Shown here: positions 20 through 37,645 of the stretch, in pieces
How positions within the stretch are numbered: the first letter of the stretch is position 1
Layout of the letters: every line of letters starts with the position of its first letter
NCBI GenBank assembly: GCA_903885445.1
Contig: CAISIO010000029.1
Span: 1 to 38,380, forward strand
DNA from: Candidatus Staskawiczbacteria bacterium
GTDB taxonomy: Bacteria; Patescibacteriota; Minisyncoccia; Minisyncoccales; Staskawiczbacteraceae
Direction of reading: 5' to 3'
Length of the DNA stretch: 38,380 nucleotides
Translations under genes and position numbers: made by a program
Notes under the pieces: model-generated
Seen by the model: only the letters and a program-made list of their open reading frames with translations
What the model was told of the DNA's origin: nothing
The model's database searches: none

Positions 20-2128
20 ATGGAAATGAATTACAAAAAAATAAGTTTTTTAATAATAATCATTGTTGCAGTTGTTCTATTAGGAGGCTTGGCTGTAAAT
101 CATTTCAAATATAATTTATCGTCATTTTTAACAGCATCATTAATACCTCCGCCTACGCAAATTAAAGATCAGCATATCACTGCTTTTGCGGTTTTCGCCG
201 GCGCAGCCATAAGCGATGCCACTCCTGCCTCTGGCTCTATAACCGGCGATGTCGGTTTGACGCCCACCGGCGGCACTGCTATCACCGGATTAACATGCGC
301 TGAAATGACAGGGGTTAGCAAAATATACGATAATAATGCCGGATATACGGGCAATCCTGCTGGCACAGCATGTTTAACAACCGATTCGGCCCTCCTAATT
401 ACAGCCAAGGGCGAACTAAGCGCGGCATATAACGATGCTAAAGGCCGAACAGGCGCCACCACAGTTACCGCCAATGCTACAGATTCTTTCGCTGGCATTG
501 GTACCGGCGTTGGCGGGTATACTTTAGCGCCCGGTGTCTATAAATCTGGCTCTTCAATGGGGGTTCCTGTATCGCTTACCCTTGATGGCGGTGGTAATAC
601 GAATGCAGTTTTTATATTCCAAACAGGCACTACGCTTAACACCGCAAACAGCAGCGTAATTAATTTGATTAATGGCACTCAGGCCTGCAATGTCTTCTGG
701 CAGGTTGGCAGTTCTGCGATACTTGGAACAGGTTCCGATTTCTCCGGAACTGTCATGGCCGCAGTTTCAATCACAGATGCCGGTGGCTCAACTGTTCACG
801 GAAGGCTGTTGGCCGATGCTGATAACACAGATGCCGATTCTACCGGTGCGGTCGCATTGAGCGGCACTCACGTTATTGTACCAACATGCGCGGATGCTCT
901 TGCTAATGGCGCTTGCGGAACCGCTGCTAAAAGTTATCTTTATACTGACGTAGCTTTTTCAGGAACAATGTGCGGCGATGGTAATGGAGTGACAACTCCT
1001 GCAAGCCCAGCCTTTCCAGCCGCCGGTAACTCAGTAACGTGGACATGCGCTGGAATTTATGGTGGAATTCCTTCCGGCACGTGTACGGCCTCAGCTGGTA
1101 GCGTGCCGCCCGCAACTCTCACTTTGGTTAAAACCATTATTGGCGGCGCTCAAACATTCGCAGATTTTCCATTAACAGCTACTGGGACAACTACCATCAC
1201 CGGTGTTTATCCTGCATCAGCTATTACTAATGCCATTGTTTCCGCCGGCACATATGCTCTTTCGGAAAAAACACAATCTGATTATACGGCAGGGGTATGG
1301 AGTTGTTTAAAAAACGACACTCCTCCAGCAGTTACTGGCGCTTCAATCGCACTCGCTTCTGGCGATAGCGCAATCTGTACTATTCAAAATACTTACTCGG
1401 GCGGTGGCGGAAACAGTTATCCCAAGACATTAGTGCCGCCGCTCATTGAGGTAGTAAAGGTGCCAAGTCCTTTGGCTTTGCCGAGTGGTCCTGGTCCTGT
1501 GACATATACGTATAAGCTTCGCAATATTGGAACGGTCCCGGTAAATAATATAACAATGGTTGATGACACTTGCGGGCCGGTAATTTTTGTTTCCGGTGAC
1601 ATGAATAGTGATTCAAGGCTGGACATGAATGAAACATGGACATACGATTGTTTTAAGACGCTTTCGGCAACCGACACAAACACCGTCGTCGCAACCGGAT
1701 GGGCTGATGGCGTAAGCGCGACCGATATAGCAACCGCCACAGTAGTTGTCGGTTCTCCTATAGTGCCTCCATTAATTCACGTGACAAAAGTTCCGAGTCC
1801 GTTGGCATTGCCTGCCGGAGGCGGAATGGTTACTTATACTAAAAAAGTTACCAATCCTGGAACAGTAGCGTTGAGCAATATCCAAATTGCCGATGATAAG
1901 TGTGGTGCTGTAAAATATGTTTCAGGAGACGCGAACAGTGATTCAAAGCTTGATCCCGCCGAAACATGGACATATTCATGCAGCGCGAATCTTACCAAAA
2001 CTACGACAAACACAGTCACTGTGAGCGGCCAAGCCAACGGTTTGACGGCTAGAGACTTTGCAATTGCTACTGTTATTGTGGCTACGCCTAAGTTACCAAA
2101 TACGGGTTTTGCTCCTAGCGTTAAATAG
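20..2128 (+). CDS. Secreted DUF3494 (ice-binding-like) protein with prealbumin/SpaA-like domain, two DUF11-like repeats and C-terminal LPNTG motif
   Basis: N-terminal hydrophobic segment; AFAVFAGAAISDATPASGSITGDVGLTPTGG...VFIFQTGTTLNTA...VFWQVGSSAILGTGS matches the DUF3494 pattern; two VPPLI.V.KVPSPLALP repeats; ends KLPNTGFAPSVK*. Confidence 0.85.
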   Translation: MEMNYKKISFLIIIIVAVVLLGGLAVNHFKYNLSSFLTASLIPPPTQIKDQHITAFAVFAGAAISDATPASGSITGDVGLTPTGGTAITGLTCAEMTGVSKIYDNNAGYTGNPAGTACLTTDSALLITAKGELSAAYNDAKGRTGATTVTANATDSFAGIGTGVGGYTLAPGVYKSGSSMGVPVSLTLDGGGNTNAVFIFQTGTTLNTANSSVINLINGTQACNVFWQVGSSAILGTGSDFSGTVMAAVSITDAGGSTVHGRLLADADNTDADSTGAVALSGTHVIVPTCADALANGACGTAAKSYLYTDVAFSGTMCGDGNGVTTPASPAFPAAGNSVTWTCAGIYGGIPSGTCTASAGSVPPATLTLVKTIIGGAQTFADFPLTATGTTTITGVYPASAITNAIVSAGTYALSEKTQSDYTAGVWSCLKNDTPPAVTGASIALASGDSAICTIQNTYSGGGGNSYPKTLVPPLIEVVKVPSPLALPSGPGPVTYTYKLRNIGTVPVNNITMVDDTCGPVIFVSGDMNSDSRLDMNETWTYDCFKTLSATDTNTVVATGWADGVSATDIATATVVVGSPIVPPLIHVTKVPSPLALPAGGGMVTYTKKVTNPGTVALSNIQIADDKCGAVKYVSGDANSDSKLDPAETWTYSCSANLTKTTTNTVTVSGQANGLTARDFAIATVIVATPKLPNTGFAPSVK

Positions 2129-23122: not shown

Positions 23123-24658
23123 ATGAAAATACCCAAATTTTTAAAAAGAAAAAGAAACATCTGGATTATAATAATTTTGGTTGTGGTTATTTTGCTCGGG
23201 TTTCTAATTTTTAGCCCGAAAAATAATACAAGTTCTATCCAAACCGGTTTTGTTACCAAACAAAATTTACAGGAGACGGTTCTCTCGACCGGGCAGGTTG
23301 TCAGCGAGATAGACCTTAGTTTGGGCTTTCAGGGTAGCGGGGTTGTCAGGCGAGTTTTGGCTAATGAGGGTGATAAAGTAAGGCAAGGCCAGCTCTTGGC
23401 TTCGCTTGACCAATCAAGCGCTCTGGCGACCCTGACTACGGCCCAAGGTTCTTTGGCGCAGGCGAAGGCGAACTACGAGAAGCTTTTAGCAGGCGCGTCG
23501 CAGCAGAGCGTTAAAACAGTTCAGGATTCCATAAACTCGGCTAAGCAGGATTTAACTAACGCCTACAACGGCGCAATAAACACTTTAAATAGCGCCCACA
23601 CCAGCATGTTTAACGCTTTTTCTGTGGCTAATTTAATTCAAAACGCTTATTTTTCAGCCAGCGACCAACAAGGAGTCGCGGTGTCCGCCGCTAAAATCAA
23701 TATTAACAGCAATATGCAGACCGCGCAAAATTATTTAAATACTGCAGAGACAAGCATGGATCCTGGAGACATTGATACGGCAATAGGGAAAACGATATTA
23801 GACCTCAATAAAATCTATGATGATTTAAATATCATCCGGGCACAATGCGACCAAGGGCTTTATTATACAAGTGTCGCATCCGCCGATAAAGCATCTTTGG
23901 ATGCGCAGAAAACATATATTAATACTGCGTTAGCTGGAGTTACTTCGGCGCAACAAAGTGTTGCTTCTCTAAAATTGGCGTTGCAAAAAGCAGAAGACCA
24001 GCTAAGCGTTACGACCGCTCCGCCGACCCAAGCAGACGTTGATTTGGCAAAGGCCCAGATGCTTTCGGCGCAGGGCCAGGTTGATTCGGCGCAAGCTGTT
24101 TTAAATAATTCAGTTATAATTGCGCCGGCTGCGGGGACCATTACTAGAGTTGATATAAAAGTTGGCGAGCAGGCAACTCCTTCAAAAGAAGTGATGGTTT
24201 TGCAGGACGTTGGAGATCTGCACGCCGAAGCCGACGTAAGTGAGGCCAATGTTGCGTCTTTGCAAATTGGGCAAAGCATTGATTATACGTTTGATGCACT
24301 CGGACCAGACCAACATTTTATCGGAAAGGTTTTAACAATAAACCCGTCTTCAACGGTAATTTCCGGAGTTGTTGACTATAAGGTTGCAGGCAGTTTTGAT
24401 AATGTACCCAGCATAAAACCCGGCATGACTGCCAATATGACAATTCTAGTCGCGCAAAAAATTGATGCGCTGGCCGTTCCGTCTACGGCGATAATAAACA
24501 AAAACAATAAGCAATACGTGAGGGTTATTGATGATCCAAAAACAAAAACCTATCACGAAGTACAAGTGCAAACAGGATTGCAGGCAGACGGCGGGCTTGT
24601 TGAAATTATTTCCGGGTTAAGTGATGGCCGGCAAATAGTAGTTTATATGAAACCATAA
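23123..24658 (+). CDS. Periplasmic adaptor (HlyD/MacA-type membrane fusion protein)
   Basis: N-terminal TM, lipoyl halves GVVRRVLANEGDKVRQGQLLASLDQ and VIIAPAAGTITRVDIKVGEQ flanking a long coiled coil. Confidence 0.88.
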   Translation: MKIPKFLKRKRNIWIIIILVVVILLGFLIFSPKNNTSSIQTGFVTKQNLQETVLSTGQVVSEIDLSLGFQGSGVVRRVLANEGDKVRQGQLLASLDQSSALATLTTAQGSLAQAKANYEKLLAGASQQSVKTVQDSINSAKQDLTNAYNGAINTLNSAHTSMFNAFSVANLIQNAYFSASDQQGVAVSAAKININSNMQTAQNYLNTAETSMDPGDIDTAIGKTILDLNKIYDDLNIIRAQCDQGLYYTSVASADKASLDAQKTYINTALAGVTSAQQSVASLKLALQKAEDQLSVTTAPPTQADVDLAKAQMLSAQGQVDSAQAVLNNSVIIAPAAGTITRVDIKVGEQATPSKEVMVLQDVGDLHAEADVSEANVASLQIGQSIDYTFDALGPDQHFIGKVLTINPSSTVISGVVDYKVAGSFDNVPSIKPGMTANMTILVAQKIDALAVPSTAIINKNNKQYVRVIDDPKTKTYHEVQVQTGLQADGGLVEIISGLSDGRQIVVYMKP

Positions 24659-25374
24659 TGAGCTTAATAGAAGTAGAAAATCTTGGAAAAGATTACATTA
24701 ACGACGAAGTTGTAACGCGCGTTTTGCACGACGTCAGTTTTAAGATAAAAGAAGGGGAGTTCGTGGCAATTATGGGCCCCTCCGGTTCTGGGAAGTCAAC
24801 TTTAATGCACATATTAAGCTTTTTGGACCGGCCAACCGCCGGTGTTTATAAATTTGAGGACAAAAATACAAAAGATTTTAACGACGATTATCTGGCGAAG
24901 TTGAGGAACGAAAGAGTCGGGTTTGTTTTTCAATCCTTTAATTTATTGGCGCGCACAACAGTTTTAGATAATGTAAGATTGCCCCTAATTTACAGCAAGA
25001 AAAAAAATTATGACGAATTAGCGGAAAAAGCGCTGGAATCGGTTGGAATGTCGCACAGGTTAAATTATTTTACAAACCAGATTTCCGGCGGAGAAAAGCA
25101 GAGAGTCGCAATCGCCAGGGCGCTGGTAAATAATCCGGCTGTAATTTTTGCCGACGAGCCGACAGGAAATCTTGATTCAAAATCTGGAAACGCGGTAATG
25201 CATATTCTGCAGAAATTAAATAACCAGGGCCACACAATTATTTTGGTCACGCACGAAACAGATACTGCTAATCACGCAAAGAGAATTATCCGCATAAAAG
25301 ACGGAAATATTATTTCTGATGAAAAAGTAGAAAGGCGTACGATTGCTGAAACCGACAAAGAGCTGGTGAAATAA
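24658..25374 (+). CDS. ABC transporter ATPase (MacB/LolD type)
   Basis: GPSGSGKST, ISGGEKQRVAIARAL, VIFADEPTGNLD. Confidence 0.96.
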   Translation: MSLIEVENLGKDYINDEVVTRVLHDVSFKIKEGEFVAIMGPSGSGKSTLMHILSFLDRPTAGVYKFEDKNTKDFNDDYLAKLRNERVGFVFQSFNLLARTTVLDNVRLPLIYSKKKNYDELAEKALESVGMSHRLNYFTNQISGGEKQRVAIARALVNNPAVIFADEPTGNLDSKSGNAVMHILQKLNNQGHTIILVTHETDTANHAKRIIRIKDGNIISDEKVERRTIAETDKELVK

Positions 25375-25379
25375 TTTAA

Positions 25380-26651
25380 ATGGATTTTATTGGAACAATT
25401 AAATTGGTTTTCAGGACTCTGCTTGCCAGAAAAGGCAGGTCGTTTTTGACTATTTTGGGAATTGTTATCGGAGTTGCAGGAGTAATTATTATAATTGCTT
25501 TGGGGGCCGGAGCGCAGAGTTTAATTTTGGGGCAGGTTACAAAATTGGGCTCTAACCTTTTGAGCGTAGCTCCCGGCGGAGGAAACGAAAAGGGCCCGCC
25601 ATCAACTATATTTGGAATTACTGTTACAACCTTGGTGAATTCCGACGTTGATTCATTGCGGAGCAAAACACAAGTTCCGCACGCCTCAGCGGTTAATGCT
25701 ATGGTTCGCGGAACCGCGACCGCCGTTTGGCAAAATAAAAATGTTGATACAAATTTTATTGGAACAGAAAGCAGTTATTCCGATGTTATCAGTTTTACAA
25801 TGCAGGAAGGTCAATTTTTTAACCAATCAGAAGAGCGGGGAAGCGCAAATATTGCTGTTTTAGGTTCCACGGTTGCTGATGAATTGTTTGGCGGAACTGG
25901 CGTTGACCCGGTGGGGCAGGTGATTAAAGTTAAAAGCTCTTCAAACACGGAAGCGGGCGGAATTCCTTTGCGGGTAATAGGAGTTATAACTCCGCGAGGA
26001 AGTTCATTTTTTCAAGACAACGATGACCAGATATTTCTTCCTTTAGTAATCGGCCAGCAGCAATTGCTCGGCATTCACTATTTAGAGGCAATAAATATAA
26101 AAGTTGATTCATCGTCAAATATTGACCAAACAATCAGCGATGTGACAAGGGTTTTAAAGCAAAACCACCACATTCAAAGCAACTCGGATATTGATTTTAC
26201 TGTTTATAATGTCGCTGACGCAATAAGTGTTTTGAGCACGATCACAAACGCGCTGAGATTATTTTTGACTGCAATGGCGGCAATTGCCTTGGTCGTGGGC
26301 GGAATTGGAATTTTGAATATTATGCTGGCGACAGTTGCGGAAAGGACAAGGGAAATTGGTTTGCGAAAAGCGGTCGGCGCGACAAATGGAGCAGTAATGC
26401 GGCAATTTTTACTGGAAGCCGGGACTTTAACTTTTTTGGGCGGGATTGCGGGGATTATTATTGGGACGGCAATTTCTTATTTGATAACTTTACTGATGCA
26501 TTATTTAGGATACGATTGGGCGTTTATGGTTTCAATTTCCTCTATTTTATTGGCCGTGGGAGTTTCGATATTAACCGGCGTAATTTTTGGCTTGTACCCG
26601 GCGTTGAAAGCATCAAGATTAAATCCAATCGAAGCACTAAGATATGAATAA
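25380..26651 (+). CDS. MacB-like ABC permease (FtsX domain)
   Basis: KGRSFLTILGIVIGV N-term, MacB periplasmic core, GGIGILNIMLATVAERTREIGLRKAVGAT. Confidence 0.93.
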   Translation: MDFIGTIKLVFRTLLARKGRSFLTILGIVIGVAGVIIIIALGAGAQSLILGQVTKLGSNLLSVAPGGGNEKGPPSTIFGITVTTLVNSDVDSLRSKTQVPHASAVNAMVRGTATAVWQNKNVDTNFIGTESSYSDVISFTMQEGQFFNQSEERGSANIAVLGSTVADELFGGTGVDPVGQVIKVKSSSNTEAGGIPLRVIGVITPRGSSFFQDNDDQIFLPLVIGQQQLLGIHYLEAINIKVDSSSNIDQTISDVTRVLKQNHHIQSNSDIDFTVYNVADAISVLSTITNALRLFLTAMAAIALVVGGIGILNIMLATVAERTREIGLRKAVGATNGAVMRQFLLEAGTLTFLGGIAGIIIGTAISYLITLLMHYLGYDWAFMVSISSILLAVGVSILTGVIFGLYPALKASRLNPIEALRYE

Positions 26652-27891
26652 TAGAAAAGCGTTTCAACAATCGGTAAGGGCATTGTCGGCAAATCCGGTG
26701 CGGACGGTTTTAACGACTCTGGGAATTGTAATTGGAATTGCCACAGTGATTATGGTTCTATCAGCGGGAGCTGGGTTTAGAAGCCTGATAAACGACGAAA
26801 TTAAATCTTTAGGAAGCGATACTTTGTTTATTAAAACGCGCGTGCCTCCAACAACGAAAAATCGCGCGGCGAGTTCCTTGACTCCCGGAATATCGGTTGG
26901 AATAACAACCTTCAAGCAGCGCGATTTGGAAGATATTAAAAAACTAAACAACGTTGCAAATGATTACGGAATGGTGACAGGGATGGCGGTTACAAATTAC
27001 AGAGACAACAAGAAAAGCGTTATTTATTTCGGGTCTTCCGCGGAAAGATTTATTATCGACCAGCACACTTTAAAAAGCGGAAGATTTTATACGCAAGCCG
27101 AAGACAATGGAGCCGCGCAAGTTGTTGTTTTGGGAAGCAATCTTTCGAATAACTTATTTTTACAGGACGACCCGCTGGGTAAATTAATCCGCATCGGAAA
27201 TTTGAATTTTCAGGTCATTGGAGTTTACAACTCGCAAGGGTCGGTCGGCGGAAACGGAGCAGACGATAGCGCTTATATGCCCTTGGGGACAGCGCAGAAA
27301 AAAATGCTTGGAGTTGATTACGTCACCGTCGCGGTCGTGCAATTAAAAAATGTTAATCTGGCCGACGCGACAGCTTCGCAAATTAGTTTAACTTTGGAGC
27401 GTAATCACAATATAGCAGATTCGGCAAAAGACGATTTTATTGTAATGACGCAGGCGCAGGTTTTAGATATTTACAATACAATTTTTAACGGCATAACTAT
27501 TTTGCTGATTGCGATTGCCTCTATTTCTCTGGTTGTCGGCGGAGTTGGAATTATGAATATTATGTATGTTGTGGTTACAGAAAGAACAGCGGAAATAGGG
27601 CTGAAGAAATCTCTAGGAGCGACAGGCGGAGACATCTTAAAAGAGTTTTTAATTGAATCTATTTTAGTTACTATTCTGGGGGGAATCATAGGCATTTTAT
27701 TGGGAACTGTTTTGAGTTGGTTGGTTTCGGTTGTGGCAATTTCAAGCGGATTAGTTTGGACATTTACGGTTCCATTGTATGCGATAATTATTGCCGTAGG
27801 AGTTTCGGGCGCGATTGGAATATCTTTTGGAGTTTTGCCGGCGCGTTCGGCGGCTAAATTGGATCCTATTGAAGCATTGCGGTACGAGTAA
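26644..27891 (+). CDS. MacB-like ABC permease (FtsX domain), second paralogue
   Basis: NPVRTVLTTLGIVIGIA, GGVGIMNIMYVVVTERTAEIGLKKSLGAT; overlaps the preceding gene. Confidence 0.93.
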   Translation: MNNRKAFQQSVRALSANPVRTVLTTLGIVIGIATVIMVLSAGAGFRSLINDEIKSLGSDTLFIKTRVPPTTKNRAASSLTPGISVGITTFKQRDLEDIKKLNNVANDYGMVTGMAVTNYRDNKKSVIYFGSSAERFIIDQHTLKSGRFYTQAEDNGAAQVVVLGSNLSNNLFLQDDPLGKLIRIGNLNFQVIGVYNSQGSVGGNGADDSAYMPLGTAQKKMLGVDYVTVAVVQLKNVNLADATASQISLTLERNHNIADSAKDDFIVMTQAQVLDIYNTIFNGITILLIAIASISLVVGGVGIMNIMYVVVTERTAEIGLKKSLGATGGDILKEFLIESILVTILGGIIGILLGTVLSWLVSVVAISSGLVWTFTVPLYAIIIAVGVSGAIGISFGVLPARSAAKLDPIEALRYE

Positions 27892-31521: not shown

Positions 31522-31570
31522 TTGACGTGATTCTCTGATAGTATATAATAAAATCATAAATAATAAAAAT

Positions 31571-31780
31571 ATGGCGGACAAAAAAATAACAATTGAGGAA
31601 TTGGCAAAAATGATAAATAAAGGATTTAATAATGTCACAGGACAAATTAACGGTTTAAAAACAGATGTTGCAGATATAAAAAAAGATGTTAAAGAAATAA
31701 AGAACGAACTTGTCAGAGTTGATGCGGTAGAAAAAAGAGTTGATTACATCGAAAACACATTAAACATCTCGGCTAATTAG
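31571..31780 (+). CDS. Small coiled-coil protein
   Basis: 69 aa heptad-like GQINGLKTDVADIKKDVKEIKNELVRVDAVEKRVDYIENTL. Confidence 0.6.
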   Translation: MADKKITIEELAKMINKGFNNVTGQINGLKTDVADIKKDVKEIKNELVRVDAVEKRVDYIENTLNISAN

Positions 31781-31824
31781 TTTGATTTTAAATGAATAAA
31801 TTATGTCAGCTAAACTCCGAATCC

Positions 31825-31847
31825 GAGAGAGAGAGAGAGAGAGAGAG
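31825..31847 (+). repeat. (GA)11G dinucleotide microsatellite
   Basis: 23 nt uninterrupted GAGAGAGAGAGAGAGAGAGAGAG, inside the open frame leading into the signal peptide of the giant surface protein. Confidence 0.97.
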
Positions 31848-31921
31848 TAAATCTCGCTCGCCAATTTTTTAACTCTTACTTTTTCAAAACCGCCGCAATT
31901 TTATTATGTGCCGGTTTTCTA

Positions 31922-34900
31922 TTGCCATCGTTAGTGCTGGCTTATCCCGAAATACCTCAAAATTCTGATCTAGTTGTCGCGGGTCCATACGACACCGCAG
32001 CGTCTGGAGCGGGGAATTGGGGTTGCGCTGGTTGTCTTCCTGGTGAATATCGTTATTTCGTAACAATAGGACAGAAATACCGCATAAGAGAGAATGGGAC
32101 AATTTCCAGGGTGCGCATATATACATATCTTAAGACAAACGTCACGGGCTTTTATATTGATGTGTGGAGGAAAAATGGATCTAATTATGATTTGGTAGGA
32201 ACTAGCGAGAATATTATAGACAGCCTAGTTTCGGCCGATTATGCAACCATTGACTTAGCTTCGCCTATTTCTGGTGTGCAGGAGGGGGACTATTACGGAT
32301 ATCATATGACATTTAGTGCTGGTTCCAGCAGCGCTTTCTTTGCAAGAACGAGCGTAAGTGGTGTGACAACCTATTACGCTACCAACTCTACGCCCAATTC
32401 AACAAATTATAACTGGACGGGCCAGTCATCGCTCGCCGGTGCGGTTTTGCCGATAGAGTTGTATATGACAGCTCCGCAATTTGCTTTTATCGGTGACTCT
32501 ATAATTGCCGGCCACCCCGGCCATTATAGTTTCCTCGAAGCAACCGCAACTACCAATATTGCTTCAACAATTGAAAATCAATTTGGCGCCTTAGGGAGTT
32601 ACACATATCAAAACATGGGCATTGGTTCTCAAACCACGACTAATATTGCCGCCCGTTTTACAAACGATATAATAAATCTACACCCTACGGTTGTTGTATT
32701 AGAGGGTGGTGTAAATGATATAGCGGGGGGCGCTGCAAAATCTACTTTTATTTCTAATTGGACAACGATGCTGGCAGCCGCGCAGGCCAGTAGTAGTGTT
32801 CAATATATTTTAGTCTTGAAAATTTTGCCGTGGACAAATGGTACCAACACACAAATGCAAACCCGAGATGATTGGAATGCTTCATTGGTTGCACTTGCCT
32901 CAAGTTATTCAAAAGCTATTGTTGTTGACGCGAGCACTTATGTGGGAGAATTTCGTGCTGGTGGTGATGCTGGAAATCTTTGGAATATTCAGGCTATTTA
33001 TAACGCAGATGGAGTTCATTTTAACCAGGCTGGTCATGGGCAAGTAGCCCTTGCTCTTGGCGAAGCTCTTAATAATATTGGCCCGACCATCTCCACCTTG
33101 TCTCCCGTGGATAACGCAACAGGAGTTGACATGGACACTAATCTCGTGATTACCTTTGACAGAGTTGTTATCCCGCAGGCAGGAGCAGACAATAACATCG
33201 TTATCAAAAAAACTAGCGATAATTCAACTATTGAAACTATCGATGCGGAAAGCGCGCAGGTTACCGGCAGCGGGACAGCAACAATTACCATTAATTCATC
33301 TGTTACGTTGGATCCTTCAACAAGTTATTATGTCCAAATTGGAGTGGATGCTTTTGATGATGCCAGTGGCAATAGTTTCGTGGGCATCAGTAACACAACA
33401 ACCTGGAATTTTACAACCGTTGATATTGAAAACCCTCTAGTCTCCACCTTATCTCCTGCAGATAACGCTGTAAGCGTCGATGTGAGCGCCAACCTCGTGA
33501 TTACTTTTGACGAAGCTGTCACTCCGCAGGCCGGCGCTAACAATGATATTATTATTAAAAAATCCAGTGACAACAGCACGGTAGAAACGATAGATGCCCA
33601 AAGCGCGCAGGTTACCGGCAGCGGGACAGCAACAATTACCATTAATCCATCTATCACACTGGCTTCCGCGACAGATTATTACGTCCAGATTGGAGCCGAT
33701 GCGTTTGACGACACAAGTGGCAATAGTTTCGTGGGTATAAGCAATACTACAACTTGGAATTTTACAACAGGAGCGGGTCCTTTGGATGGATTTTTATATT
33801 ATAAACAGATAACGGTTAGCAATGCCAATATAGATGCTGTTCTTACTGATTTTCCGTTGCGTGTTTACATATCGGCAGATTCGGATATGGGCGCCGTTAC
33901 GAGAGATGATGGTTACGATATACGTTTTACTGCGCCTGATCAAGCTACAATCCTGCCATATCAGCGCGAAACTTGGAGTGGTGGCAACGGGTCGGCTGTT
34001 ACGGCCAATTTTTGGGTGAAAACAACGCTTAATGCCGATAATAACACTGCAACTAATGATACGATCTATGTTTATTATGGAAAATCTGACGCAATTGATG
34101 GCCAGGATGCTGCTGATGGCGATAATGATGTTTGGAACAGTAATTTTGCCGGAGTTTGGCATTTGGACGAAACTGCAACTGACGAGGGAACCGTTGCTGG
34201 GCTTCATGCCGACTCCACTTCAAATAATAAAGATGGTAGTCAGAGTGGTAACACCAATACTGTCGGTAAGATTTCTAACGCTCAAGATTTTGATGGAATC
34301 AATGATGTTATAGAAATTAATTCCGCATATAACAGCGCCGATATAACTGTTTCATGGTGGTCCAATTGCGCTATTTCAAATCCAACAGCGGAAGGAATCT
34401 TAGCAATTTATCGCCAGGCGAGTGGCGATAGTCTTTGGGGGTATCATTGGAATCTTGTCACTAGCGGAGTATATATTGTTTACAGAGACGCTTCAACGAA
34501 CACGTTTTATAAAAGAATTTTGGATTCTTCAATAACGCAAGCAGATTGGCATTATTATTCCGTGGCGTGGGATGAAACAGCTAAAACTTTTACTTTGTAT
34601 GTGGACGGTGTAGTGCAATCTGGTGTTGGCACTGGAAATCCTGATTTTCCGACGACACTTGCCACAACGAGATTGGGTTATAGTCATGAAAATTGGCCGG
34701 GAGATGTAAATATAGATGAATTCAGAATTTCTTCGATTGTCCGGCCGGTGGCGTGGACAAAATTTGAATATAGAAATATGGGAGTGGCGGGCAATGATAT
34801 TAATTTTGGTGATCAAACTTCAACGGCTAGTACCGACGCGACCATCTCTGCAGGAACCTTAGCCTCGCAAACCATCTCGGGGACATTCACCGGCGGAGCT

Positions 34901-37645
34901 AATATCGCGGGCAGTTCGGCCTTAACGGTCACAGTCCCAGATGCTGACAAAACAAACGCGGCCTTGGCGCTAACAAAAGGCGACTCAGGTTCAACTATCA
35001 AGTACGTCAAAGGTTCTCAGCCTAGCGTTGATGGCGACTACACTGGCACCTACTCTCAAGGCAGCACAACCATCACCGTAGTCAACAACGACATCATCTG
35101 GTTATTGGTAACCGCGGCAGACACGACAACCAAGCTGTATTACAAGATTACGGTTACGGTCAATGCGCCACTCGTAACAGATATTACAACTGCAGGCGTG
35201 ACTGGATTTGTGGCTCCGGCAACAGGTGGAACGCCTCAAGTGTTCGGAAACTTAACAGCAGGCTCAGTACAATATACTGTTACGGGTTTAACATGGTCTC
35301 CAACTGATAATCCTTTCCACGCATCAACAGCTTATACAGCCACAGTCGTGCTTACTTCCGCTGCAATTTACAAGTTTCCGACAGGAAACATAGCATCTCC
35401 GACTGCTGATGTCGGAACAGTAAACAGCATAGGCACAACCAGCGGTGGTGATGTGTCGGGCAACCATCTCACATTCACAGTGCTGTTCCCGGCAACGGCT
35501 GCCAAAATTACTCCAACTCTTTCAGTCACCAATTCGCCCGTAACTTACAATGCATCTCAGCAGACAGCCACAGTTTCAGGTTCGGTTGCAGGAACTGTAA
35601 GTAATGTTGAATATTCAGGTTCTCTGACTGTTCCAACTAATGCCGGCACCTACGCAATTACAGCTGACTTTGCTCCGACAGATTCCACAAATTATAACTC
35701 GTTGACCGGAGCATCGGCAGGAAACTTTGTTATCAGCAAAGCCACCCAATCAACATTAACCTTTGCGGGCCGGACCGTTACTTCTCCTGCAACCTTTTCA
35801 GCTCTTTCAACGACCGGCGGTTCTGGAACCGGAGTTGTCTCGTACGCTGTCACAACAGCAGGAACAGCAGGTTGCAGTATTGTCGGAACCACGCTTTCGT
35901 ATACATCAGCTGGAACATGCGGAGTCACAGCAACCAAAGCCGCTGACTCAAATTATAATTCAGCTTCATCATCTGAAGCTACGTTTACAATTAACGCAGC
36001 GCTGAATTCAGCTAAATCAATTACAGCATTCAGTTTTCAGGGGTTGAGTCCGGCGGTCACAGCAATAATCAACGGGACAAATATTACCGCAACTTTTCCG
36101 TTCGGCACAACAATCACTAATCTTGTGGCAACATTTACAACCACTGGCTCGTCAGTTGCAGTCGGCGCAACACCGCAAACAAGCGGAACAACGGCAAACA
36201 ATTTCACAAGTCCGATCACTTATACAGTTACCGCCGAGAACTCAACTACACAAGATTATACGGTTACTATTAATGTGATTGCTTCGTTGGTTATTTCCGA
36301 CGTTCTATCTGTCCCAAATTCTTCGGGGGCAGTTATTACCTGGACAACTAACGAAAACTTATCTTCTAAAGCTGACTATGGATTAACAACTTCCTACGGC
36401 GATTCAACGGCAGAAACAGACACATCAACAAGAGTCGCTAGCCACTCAGTATCTCTGTCCGGCCTTTCTGCTTGTACAACTTACCATTATCGCGTTCGGT
36501 CACGAGACGCGGCTGCTAATGAAATAGTCGATAATGACAATACTTTTACAACTACAGGTTGTGTCGGCTCTGCGCCGGTGACCGCTACTGCGACGGAGCA
36601 AATTAATAAAGCTACAGGAGGAACATTAACGTTAGAAGACGGTAGCTCTCATGGATTAACATTAACCGTTCCAGCTTTGTTTGCCGGATCCGACGCCAAC
36701 TTTCAGGCTCATCAATTAGACAAAGCGACGGTTTTAGCAACAACAGCTAGTCCGGCTGGATACTCTGCTGCCAGCAACCATATCTATGAATTAAAATCAT
36801 TGGCTGATAACGCAACAACCATTTCTACTTTTAGTAATGCGCTGACGGTTAGCATTTCCTACGGAGCTAGCGATATTGTTGGTTTAGATGAGTCAACCTT
36901 AAAAATATACCGATATGACGGCAGCAGCTGGAGCCAATTAACCGGGTGCACAGGGGATACGAGCGCGAAAACGGTTACTTGCACCACTACCAATTTCTCC
37001 GTGTTTGGGCTTTTTGGAGTAGCCGTAGCAAGCACAAGCGTTACCTCCGGGGGAGCCGCGTTGCCAGAGGGGTCATGGAATAAACCCGTAGCTCCCATAA
37101 ATGGGTTTGGAATCATGATCAATAATGGAGAAAAACAAACCAGTTCGACTAAGGTTATTCTAACTCTTGTTGGCGGACCAGACACCGTTAACATGGCAAT
37201 CTCTGATACAATTAATTTTATTAATTCATGGCAAGAGCCATACTCGTTAAAAAAATCTTGGACATTGCCAAGCGGTCAGGGGTTGAAAACGGTTTTTGTA
37301 AAATTTTATACAAAATGGGGTCAGTCATCTGATCCGGTTTCTGCGAGTATTATTCTAGCGAATGTAACCTCAGCGAACACAATTTTAAATCCATCATTAT
37401 CACCAGGGCTATTCACTCAAGCCCTACAATATGGTTCGAATAATAAGCAAGTTGTCTTACTTCAAGATACTCTGAAAAAATTAGGGTTTTTTCCTCAATC
37501 TATAAAATCCAATGGTAACTTCGGGCCAGCCACCCTTAAGGCTGTGCAATCCTTTCAGGTAAAATATAACATCGCAAAGCTAGGCGTTGTGGGTTACGGC
37601 CAAGTTGGGCCTAAAACTAGGTCGTTCTTGAATCAACTAAAATAG
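31922..37645 (+). CDS. Giant secreted protein: SGNH/GDSL hydrolase, two Ig-like (Big_5/SbsA-like) repeats, DUF2341 + LamG-like, further Ig/MBG-like and FnIII-like domains, C-terminal peptidoglycan-binding domain
   Basis: FIGDSIIAG, LEGGVNDIAGG, DGVHFNQAGH (SGNH blocks); LSPVDNATGVD / LSPADNAVSVD repeats; C-term LQYGSNNKQVVLLQDTLKKLGFFP...NFGPATLKAVQSFQVKY. The same frame is open upstream to 31814 and encodes NSYFFKTAAILLCAGFLLPSLVLA, so the true N-terminus is upstream of the TTG at 31922. Confidence 0.85.
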   Translation: MPSLVLAYPEIPQNSDLVVAGPYDTAASGAGNWGCAGCLPGEYRYFVTIGQKYRIRENGTISRVRIYTYLKTNVTGFYIDVWRKNGSNYDLVGTSENIIDSLVSADYATIDLASPISGVQEGDYYGYHMTFSAGSSSAFFARTSVSGVTTYYATNSTPNSTNYNWTGQSSLAGAVLPIELYMTAPQFAFIGDSIIAGHPGHYSFLEATATTNIASTIENQFGALGSYTYQNMGIGSQTTTNIAARFTNDIINLHPTVVVLEGGVNDIAGGAAKSTFISNWTTMLAAAQASSSVQYILVLKILPWTNGTNTQMQTRDDWNASLVALASSYSKAIVVDASTYVGEFRAGGDAGNLWNIQAIYNADGVHFNQAGHGQVALALGEALNNIGPTISTLSPVDNATGVDMDTNLVITFDRVVIPQAGADNNIVIKKTSDNSTIETIDAESAQVTGSGTATITINSSVTLDPSTSYYVQIGVDAFDDASGNSFVGISNTTTWNFTTVDIENPLVSTLSPADNAVSVDVSANLVITFDEAVTPQAGANNDIIIKKSSDNSTVETIDAQSAQVTGSGTATITINPSITLASATDYYVQIGADAFDDTSGNSFVGISNTTTWNFTTGAGPLDGFLYYKQITVSNANIDAVLTDFPLRVYISADSDMGAVTRDDGYDIRFTAPDQATILPYQRETWSGGNGSAVTANFWVKTTLNADNNTATNDTIYVYYGKSDAIDGQDAADGDNDVWNSNFAGVWHLDETATDEGTVAGLHADSTSNNKDGSQSGNTNTVGKISNAQDFDGINDVIEINSAYNSADITVSWWSNCAISNPTAEGILAIYRQASGDSLWGYHWNLVTSGVYIVYRDASTNTFYKRILDSSITQADWHYYSVAWDETAKTFTLYVDGVVQSGVGTGNPDFPTTLATTRLGYSHENWPGDVNIDEFRISSIVRPVAWTKFEYRNMGVAGNDINFGDQTSTASTDATISAGTLASQTISGTFTGGANIAGSSALTVTVPDADKTNAALALTKGDSGSTIKYVKGSQPSVDGDYTGTYSQGSTTITVVNNDIIWLLVTAADTTTKLYYKITVTVNAPLVTDITTAGVTGFVAPATGGTPQVFGNLTAGSVQYTVTGLTWSPTDNPFHASTAYTATVVLTSAAIYKFPTGNIASPTADVGTVNSIGTTSGGDVSGNHLTFTVLFPATAAKITPTLSVTNSPVTYNASQQTATVSGSVAGTVSNVEYSGSLTVPTNAGTYAITADFAPTDSTNYNSLTGASAGNFVISKATQSTLTFAGRTVTSPATFSALSTTGGSGTGVVSYAVTTAGTAGCSIVGTTLSYTSAGTCGVTATKAADSNYNSASSSEATFTINAALNSAKSITAFSFQGLSPAVTAIINGTNITATFPFGTTITNLVATFTTTGSSVAVGATPQTSGTTANNFTSPITYTVTAENSTTQDYTVTINVIASLVISDVLSVPNSSGAVITWTTNENLSSKADYGLTTSYGDSTAETDTSTRVASHSVSLSGLSACTTYHYRVRSRDAAANEIVDNDNTFTTTGCVGSAPVTATATEQINKATGGTLTLEDGSSHGLTLTVPALFAGSDANFQAHQLDKATVLATTASPAGYSAASNHIYELKSLADNATTISTFSNALTVSISYGASDIVGLDESTLKIYRYDGSSWSQLTGCTGDTSAKTVTCTTTNFSVFGLFGVAVASTSVTSGGAALPEGSWNKPVAPINGFGIMINNGEKQTSSTKVILTLVGGPDTVNMAISDTINFINSWQEPYSLKKSWTLPSGQGLKTVFVKFYTKWGQSSDPVSASIILANVTSANTILNPSLSPGLFTQALQYGSNNKQVVLLQDTLKKLGFFPQSIKSNGNFGPATLKAVQSFQVKYNIAKLGVVGYGQVGPKTRSFLNQLK
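33250..33646 (+). repeat. Intragenic domain duplication marked by a 46-nt identical repeat pair
   Basis: 33250-33295 identical to 33601-33646 (offset 351 nt = 117 codons) within two homologous Ig-like domains. Confidence 0.85.

What the first reader, a model, noticed from the sequence alone, without database searches (positions are those of the whole stretch)
31792..31925. Candidate phase-variation switch: (GA)11 tract between upstream ATGs and the signal peptide of a giant surface protein
Seen directly: the frame of the 1907-aa ORF continues upstream of its TTG start (31922) and encodes an obvious signal peptide (NSYFFKTAAILLCAGFLLPSLVLA-YPEIP). Going upstream this frame runs through (GA)11G (31825-31847) to a TAA at 31811, with no ATG, GTG or TTG before 31922. 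Two ATGs lie just upstream in the other two frames: 31803 (stops at TAA 31848) and 31792 (stops at TAA 31870). Deleting one GA unit gives MSAKLRIRERERERVNLARQFFNSYFFKTAAILLCAGFLLPSLVLAYPE from ATG 31803. Adding one GA unit gives MNKLCQLNSESERERERERVNLARQFFNSYFFKTAAILLC... from ATG 31792. As sequenced the gene is therefore OFF, one repeat unit from ON in either direction. Known contingency loci in pathogens use dinucleotide or other simple repeats in coding regions of surface proteins; I am not aware of this being described for a CPR-like lineage.
Basis: partly seen in the sequence, partly recalled or inferred. Interest (0 to 1): 0.9.

Follow-up and report, generated by a model that had tools for sequence, protein, structure and literature searches.

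The report
Repeat-length on/off switch for surface protein
A run of eleven GA repeats sits between the start codons and the export signal of a giant surface protein in an ultrasmall CPR bacterium, so gaining or losing one repeat should turn the protein on; related bacteria carry the same leader, in on and off forms, which suggests these tiny symbionts vary their surfaces much as pathogens do.

Summary
(GA)11G at 31825-31847 separates two ATGs in two frames from a 1,932-codon secreted protein (GDSL lipase, Big_5, DUF2341, peptidoglycan-binding) in the third frame. It is the only GA tract of 8 or more units in the 804-kb genome.

Related genomes support the phase-variation reading. The same cassette (two ATGs, GA tract, signal peptide) precedes unrelated mature proteins at four more loci in two congeners, one a Ca. 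Staskawiczbacteria MAG. All are OFF, with tracts of 15-21 nt. A sixth copy in another order is ON. Among 62 GA tracts examined, 20 (32%) sit in this out-of-frame-start position, against 1.9% of random positions. One reverse-transcriptase gene is ON with 23 nt in one species and OFF with 27 nt in its congener. MutS and MutL are absent from all 12 genomes of the genus. Two paralogues of the congener's switch-bearing proteins have ordinary ATGs but G9-G10 tracts in their promoters, and G8+TATTAT promoters occur 21 times in the order (reversed control: 1).

Not shown: tract-length variation within a population, or expression. The main rival is -2/+2 slippage during translation. Verdict: a probable contingency locus, a known mechanism in a lineage where I found no report of it.

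The parts
31522..31549 (+). sigma-70-like promoter TTGACG-16-TATAAT (11 of 12), no homopolymer in the spacer; probably drives the small ORF and the leader
   Evidence: consensus match only
31571..31780 (+). small ORF, about 69 aa, coiled-coil-like (MADKKITIEELAKMINKG...), ends 11 nt before ATG1; probably same transcript
   Evidence: read from the sequence; inference
31792..31872 (+). start 1: ATG 31792, MNKLCQLNSESERERERESKSRSPIF, stops at TAA 31870; in frame with the long ORF at 9 or 12 GA units
31803..31850 (+). start 2: ATG 31803, MSAKLRIRERERERE, stops at TAA 31848 directly after the tract; in frame with the long ORF at 10 or 13 GA units
31811..31813 (+). TAA that closes the long frame upstream of the tract
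31825..31847 (+). (GA)11G tract, the putative switch; OFF as assembled
31848..31870 (+). spacer between tract and signal peptide (VNLARQFF in the long frame), homologous to the spacer of G002
31871..31942 (+). signal peptide NSYFFKTAAILLCAGFLLPSLVLA, similar to those behind the GA tracts of G002, G008 and G534
   Evidence: no SignalP available
31814..37645 (+). long open frame of the giant secreted protein (1,907 aa from TTG 31922)
32486..33037 (+). GDSL-like lipase/acylhydrolase domain (PF13472, 7.5e-17)
33425..33769 (+). Big_5 Ig-like domain, best of two (PF13205, 6.2e-25)
33908..34114 (+). DUF2341
37442..37594 (+). C-terminal peptidoglycan-binding domain (PF01471), likely wall anchor

Best explanation
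A translational contingency (phase-variation) locus. Slippage of DNA polymerase on the (GA)n tract changes the repeat number at high rate, helped by the lack of MutS/MutL mismatch repair. Every change moves the ribosome's frame by 2 nt. With 11 units both upstream ATGs run into stops and the giant secreted protein is not made (OFF). One unit less joins ATG 31803, and one unit more joins ATG 31792, to the signal peptide and the exported protein (ON). A clonal population would thus hold a minority of cells displaying a GDSL-hydrolase/Ig-domain protein anchored to the wall. Shown: the anatomy, its recurrence, different tract lengths in homologous cassettes, ON and OFF forms between species, and absence of mismatch-repair genes. 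Inferred: slippage rate, switching within a population, expression, and surface role.
For: Exact geometry. The leader/GA/signal-peptide cassette recurs at four loci in two congeners with 15, 17, 17 and 21 nt tracts, by DNA homology for G002 and G008, and in another order in the ON state. The mature proteins behind it differ: GDSL/Big_5 here, SBBP propeller in G008, cadherin-like in G002, a parallel beta-helix-like repeat protein in G534, so the conserved part is the switch plus signal peptide. OFF-switch geometry at 20 of 62 GA tracts against 1.9% of 3,100 random positions. One RT gene is ON at 23 nt in G241 and OFF at 27 nt in G242, with 98% identical DNA downstream. Homologues L110 (ON) and L117 (OFF). 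No MutS or MutL in 12 of 12 genomes, while controls ring in 11 of 14. G008 paralogues have an ordinary ATG but G9/G10 in the promoter. G8+TATTAT occurs 21 times in the order against 1 for the reversed pattern, mostly before secreted proteins.
Against: All five cassettes in the genus are OFF, although two start frames should make two of three tract lengths ON (chance 1/243 if independent, which they are not). No reads were available, so no length variation within a population is shown. The spacer being open only in the ORF frame is weak evidence (product of shuffle probabilities 0.037). 33 of 62 GA tracts have no long ORF through them, so GA tracts are not switches everywhere.
Confidence: 0.77

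Rival explanations
1. Recoding: the GA run is a slippery sequence. Ribosomes (or RNA polymerase) slip by 2 nt on the perfectly re-pairing GAG/AGA codons, so a constant low amount of full-length protein is made from the 11-unit allele, without DNA changes.
For: All five genus loci share the same OFF class, with one frame hitting a stop directly after the tract (GAG TAA) at four of them; a 2-nt shift re-pairs perfectly.
Against: Homologous tracts differ in length (15-23 nt), and the cassette in G534 and the RT of G241 are plainly in frame. Dinucleotide slippage is rare in known recoding sites (general knowledge). It does not explain poly-G promoter tracts in paralogues.
Confidence: 0.09
2. Translation starts at a non-standard codon downstream of the tract (for example ATT 31898) or at TTG 31922, and the tract is an untranslated leader.
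For: Two G008 paralogues start with ATG just upstream of the same signal peptide.
Against: TTG 31922 lies inside the hydrophobic core and would destroy the signal peptide. No ATG/GTG/TTG lies between tract and signal peptide core in the window's long frame, and none was listed upstream of the tract in that frame at any of the five loci. The ON copy in G534 reads straight through the tract from an ATG.
Confidence: 0.06
3. The gene is a dead or mis-assembled copy: the tract length is an assembly error or the frame was lost by accident.
For: MAG assembly; OFF state; in G206 one contig ends inside such a tract.
Against: 1,932 codons without a stop behind the tract; the same arrangement independently assembled in several genomes; 32% against 1.9% enrichment.
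Confidence: 0.06

Closest known systems
Helicobacter pylori sabA and oipA, CT-dinucleotide contingency loci (PMC2715451, PMC10564699)
   Same: Dinucleotide tract at the 5' end of a surface-protein gene, ON/OFF by repeat number. [quoted passage not shown]
   Different: Here GA on the coding strand, two start codons upstream, stop in the long frame before the tract; CPR host; no expression data; coding and promoter tracts occur on different paralogues rather than in one gene.
Haemophilus influenzae tetranucleotide contingency loci such as lic1/lic2/lic3 (PMC2651432; the detail of several start codons is from memory)
   Same: Repeat just behind start codons lying in more than one frame, so more than one repeat number is ON.
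   Different: Tetranucleotide repeats in LPS genes; no signal peptide cassette.
Promoter-spacer homopolymer switches such as Neisseria meningitidis porA (PMC3639595)
   Same: Poly-G promoter tract; the G8-11 TATTAT loci in this family look alike.
   Different: Applies to paralogues and relatives, not to the window's own gene, whose promoter has no homopolymer.
Hypervariable 9-mer repeat gene of a Gracilibacterium (PMC6851277)
   Same: CPR gene with a repeat tract expected to slip.
   Different: Repeat unit of 9 nt keeps the frame and varies sequence/length; no ON/OFF switching.

Membership tests
SSR-mediated translational phase variation (contingency locus) | Perfect simple repeat, unit not a multiple of 3, long enough to slip and rare in the genome | tested here: met
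   (GA)11G; only GA>=16 nt in the genome; 0 of 100 shuffles
SSR-mediated translational phase variation (contingency locus) | Unit changes alternate between in-frame and out-of-frame product | tested here: met
   computed tract series
SSR-mediated translational phase variation (contingency locus) | Repeat number differs between strains or related species, giving ON and OFF alleles | tested here: met
   between species only: cassette 15-23 nt, five OFF and one ON; RT pair G241/G242 ON/OFF
SSR-mediated translational phase variation (contingency locus) | Repeat number varies within one population | not testable with these tools
   no raw reads available
SSR-mediated translational phase variation (contingency locus) | Expression follows repeat number | not testable with these tools
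   needs reporters or proteomics
SSR-mediated translational phase variation (contingency locus) | Target gene is surface-exposed or host/phage interacting | tested here: met
   signal peptide, GDSL lipase, Ig-like and peptidoglycan-binding domains; surface location inferred
Programmed ribosomal frameshift site | Slippery sequence with a stimulatory element at a conserved spacing and conserved tract length | tested here: inconclusive
   class modulo 3 conserved at five genus loci but length not; ON copy in another order; no search for a stimulatory structure was made

The most novel reading that the evidence does not exclude
The class to which Ca. Staskawiczbacteria belong has a real phasome: a portable cassette (dual-start leader, GA tract, signal peptide) that can be put in front of different exported proteins, poly-G promoter switches for other exported proteins, and GA switches in reverse-transcriptase genes, so that ultrasmall, presumably episymbiotic bacteria without mismatch repair diversify surface and diversification machinery by repeat slippage.
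Probability: 0.6. Interest if true: 0.85.

Novelty: new variant of a known kind. Interest (0 to 1): 0.76.

Why it matters
Simple-repeat phase variation is known mainly from host-adapted pathogens. Finding it in CPR bacteria, which are thought to live on other microbes, would mean that surface variation against hosts, phages or predators evolved there too. It names concrete genes to watch in existing metagenomes. It also warns that gene callers miss the true starts of such genes and that MAG consensus sequences hide ON/OFF mixtures.

Tried and rejected
The full protein finds no N-terminal homologue among 58 relatives, only domain matches; its paralogue on C3 and several other domain homologues are prepilin-like proteins with no tract. 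A leader pattern with 3 mismatches gave mostly chance hits. The leader pattern is absent from viral contigs. The single named-genome scan found only the Lac Pavin MAG. The open-spacer test was weak (0.037). Many poly-G tracts in the family lie just before or in reverse-transcriptase or VR-like contexts, read here as diversity-generating retroelement features, and were set apart from the promoter class. The G206 pilin-like loci were not counted as switches because the ORF behind the tract is short. Family and comparison searches failed on coordinates or frame.

Full report
1. Observation. The sequence is as described. A perfect (GA)11G tract lies at 31825-31847. ATG 31792 and ATG 31803 read into it in two frames and stop at TAA 31870 and TAA 31848. 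The third frame is open from behind TAA 31811 to 37645 and has no ATG, GTG or TTG before TTG 31922, which lies inside the hydrophobic core of the signal peptide. Computed alleles: 9 and 12 units join ATG 31792, 10 and 13 units join ATG 31803, 11 is OFF. GA>=14 nt is never seen in 100 dinucleotide shuffles of the window, and the tract is the only GA>=16 nt in the 804-kb genome.

2. The gene. The frame encodes a signal peptide, a GDSL lipase/acylhydrolase domain, two Big_5 Ig-like domains, DUF2341 and a C-terminal peptidoglycan-binding domain. Upstream lie a VirD4/TraG-like coupling protein and a small ORF; a good promoter match (TTGACG-16-TATAAT) precedes the small ORF at 31522. Downstream on the other strand is elongation factor P.

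3. The cassette recurs. GA>=17 nt occurs in 16 of 247 genomes of the order and GA>=13 nt in 21. In the same genus, G008 has three loci and G002 one in which two ATGs in two frames, a GA tract (17, 17, 15, 21 nt) and a signal peptide in the third frame come in the same order. The leader DNA is homologous: G008 97% over 31-32 nt before and into the tract, G002 69% over 149 nt, E 2e-8. The mature proteins are not alike: SBBP beta-propellers in G008, a cadherin-like protein in G002, and only the signal peptide gives the top local alignment between the window and G002. G008 is the Ca. Staskawiczbacteria MAG LacPavin_0920_WC70_MAG_39_33, JAPLYZ01, which places the window in that lineage. In another order of the class (G534) the cassette again has two ATGs, 19 nt of GA and the signal peptide FIKTAVFLLFCAGFLFFGFA, and there it is ON: ATG -34 reads through for more than 400 aa into a repeat protein.

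4. Position and state of GA tracts. Of 62 GA tracts examined from the order and class, 20 have an out-of-frame ATG just upstream and an open frame of at least 100 codons behind, against 1.9% of 3,100 random positions in the same loci. Four more have an upstream ATG in frame with the long ORF (ON); these are no commoner than at random positions (5.4%). The sample is not fully independent, because some loci are paralogues. Counting also the mid-gene RT loci L123 (ON), L124 and L126 (OFF), I find 5 ON and 22 OFF. Some OFF loci may be decaying genes. The cleanest pair is a reverse-transcriptase gene in two congeneric species, G241 and G242. It is 98% identical over 690 nt behind the tract and differs in length, 23 against 27 nt: ON in the first, OFF in the second. 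A second homologous pair, L110 ON and L117 OFF, is 42% identical over 103 residues.

5. Conditions for slippage. The MutS (PF00488) and MutL (PF01119) domains are found in 0 of 12 genomes of the genus, while the same searches ring in 11 of 14 control genomes.

6. A second kind of switch on paralogues. Two other G008 proteins with the same signal peptide and SBBP mature region start with an ordinary ATG but carry G10 and G9 just upstream of a TATAAT. In the order, G8 directly followed by TATTAT occurs 21 times against 1 for the reversed pattern, 19 of the 21 in the window's family. A -35-like hexamer lies mostly 16-20 nt upstream, and most readable downstream ORFs begin with a hydrophobic export signal. 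This is the promoter-spacer form of phase variation.

7. Mechanism. The best reading is slipped-strand switching of translation. What is shown is anatomy, recurrence, enrichment, variation between species and missing repair genes. What is inferred is variation within a population, expression and role. The weak point is that all five genus loci are OFF, although two start frames should make two of three lengths ON. This could mean that OFF is the selected majority state (H. pylori 26695 sabA is out of frame in 40 of 41 clones, PMC2715451), or that the tract works by ribosomal slippage of 2 nt. The ON copy in G534 and the ON/OFF RT pair speak for the first.

8. Comparison. The closest known loci are H. 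pylori sabA and oipA (CT repeats near the 5' end of outer-membrane protein genes; PMC2715451, PMC10564699). Repeats behind start codons in several frames are known from H. influenzae lic genes (from memory; survey PMC2651432). In the held library no paper that I found describes repeat-mediated ON/OFF switching in CPR; the nearest is the in-frame 9-mer repeat gene of a Gracilibacterium (PMC6851277). Papers outside that library were not searched.

9. Verdict. The finding is real and its interpretation is well supported. It is a new variant of a known kind: a portable dual-start GA leader plus signal peptide in a lineage for which I found no such report.

Noticed in passing
L123 (G241), L124 (G242), L126, L125, L303, L307, L310, L312, L314, L290, L292, L293, L305, L308, L309, L316: Many long GA tracts of the class lie in reverse-transcriptase genes (RVT_1 in the two scanned with Pfam; related to group II / DGR-like RTs, no curated NCBIfam cut-off reached), at the N-terminus or mid-gene, some ON and most OFF: possible phase-variable reverse transcriptases.
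   Followed up: partly
L260-L280, L162, L163 and others: Poly-G (8-11) directly in front of a TATTAT -10 box, before secreted proteins, nearly confined to the window's family: likely promoter-spacer phase variation.
   Followed up: partly
L198, L200, L204, L207, L208, L212, L213, L226, L235, L247, L249, L254: G9-G12 tracts just before reverse transcriptase-like ORFs or at the 3' end of ORFs, reminiscent of DGR template/variable repeats and their GC-rich initiation site.
   Followed up: no
L105, L106, L103 (G008), just behind the GA tract: A dRS3-like inverted repeat (CGTCATTCCCGCGAAAGCGGGAATCCAG) and, in two of the three, a second CCCGCC...GGCGGG element are inserted between GA tract and signal peptide without closing the reading frame.
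   Followed up: partly
window 31848; L103, L105, L112, L113, L123, L126, L128, L129: The tract is followed by TAA (often GTAAA, then a CGCCCGCC-like stretch) at many unrelated GA loci, sometimes preceded by TTAC, as if the tract belonged to a small repeated element.
   Followed up: no
L108, L109, L110, L111 (G078) and L117 (G063): A family of short similar leaders (for example MSEINKKFFEKEKPEIS, then ER repeats) with GA tracts in front of different soluble proteins (no Pfam hit in the two scanned), five copies in one genome.
   Followed up: partly
L114, L115, L116 (G206): Three GA tracts with two upstream ATGs, in front of a prepilin-like N-terminus (KGLSKKSFTLVELLIVI) in the third frame where readable; one contig ends inside the tract.
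   Followed up: no
window 20-2128 and 23123-27891: Another protein with exported-type domains (Ice_binding, SpaA_2, DUF7507) and an ordinary ATG, and an HlyD/MacB/FtsX export system in the same window.
   Followed up: no
G000:C37:1-17: A contig of the window's own genome ends in a run of 17 G, either a broken poly-G locus or a sequencing artefact.
   Followed up: no
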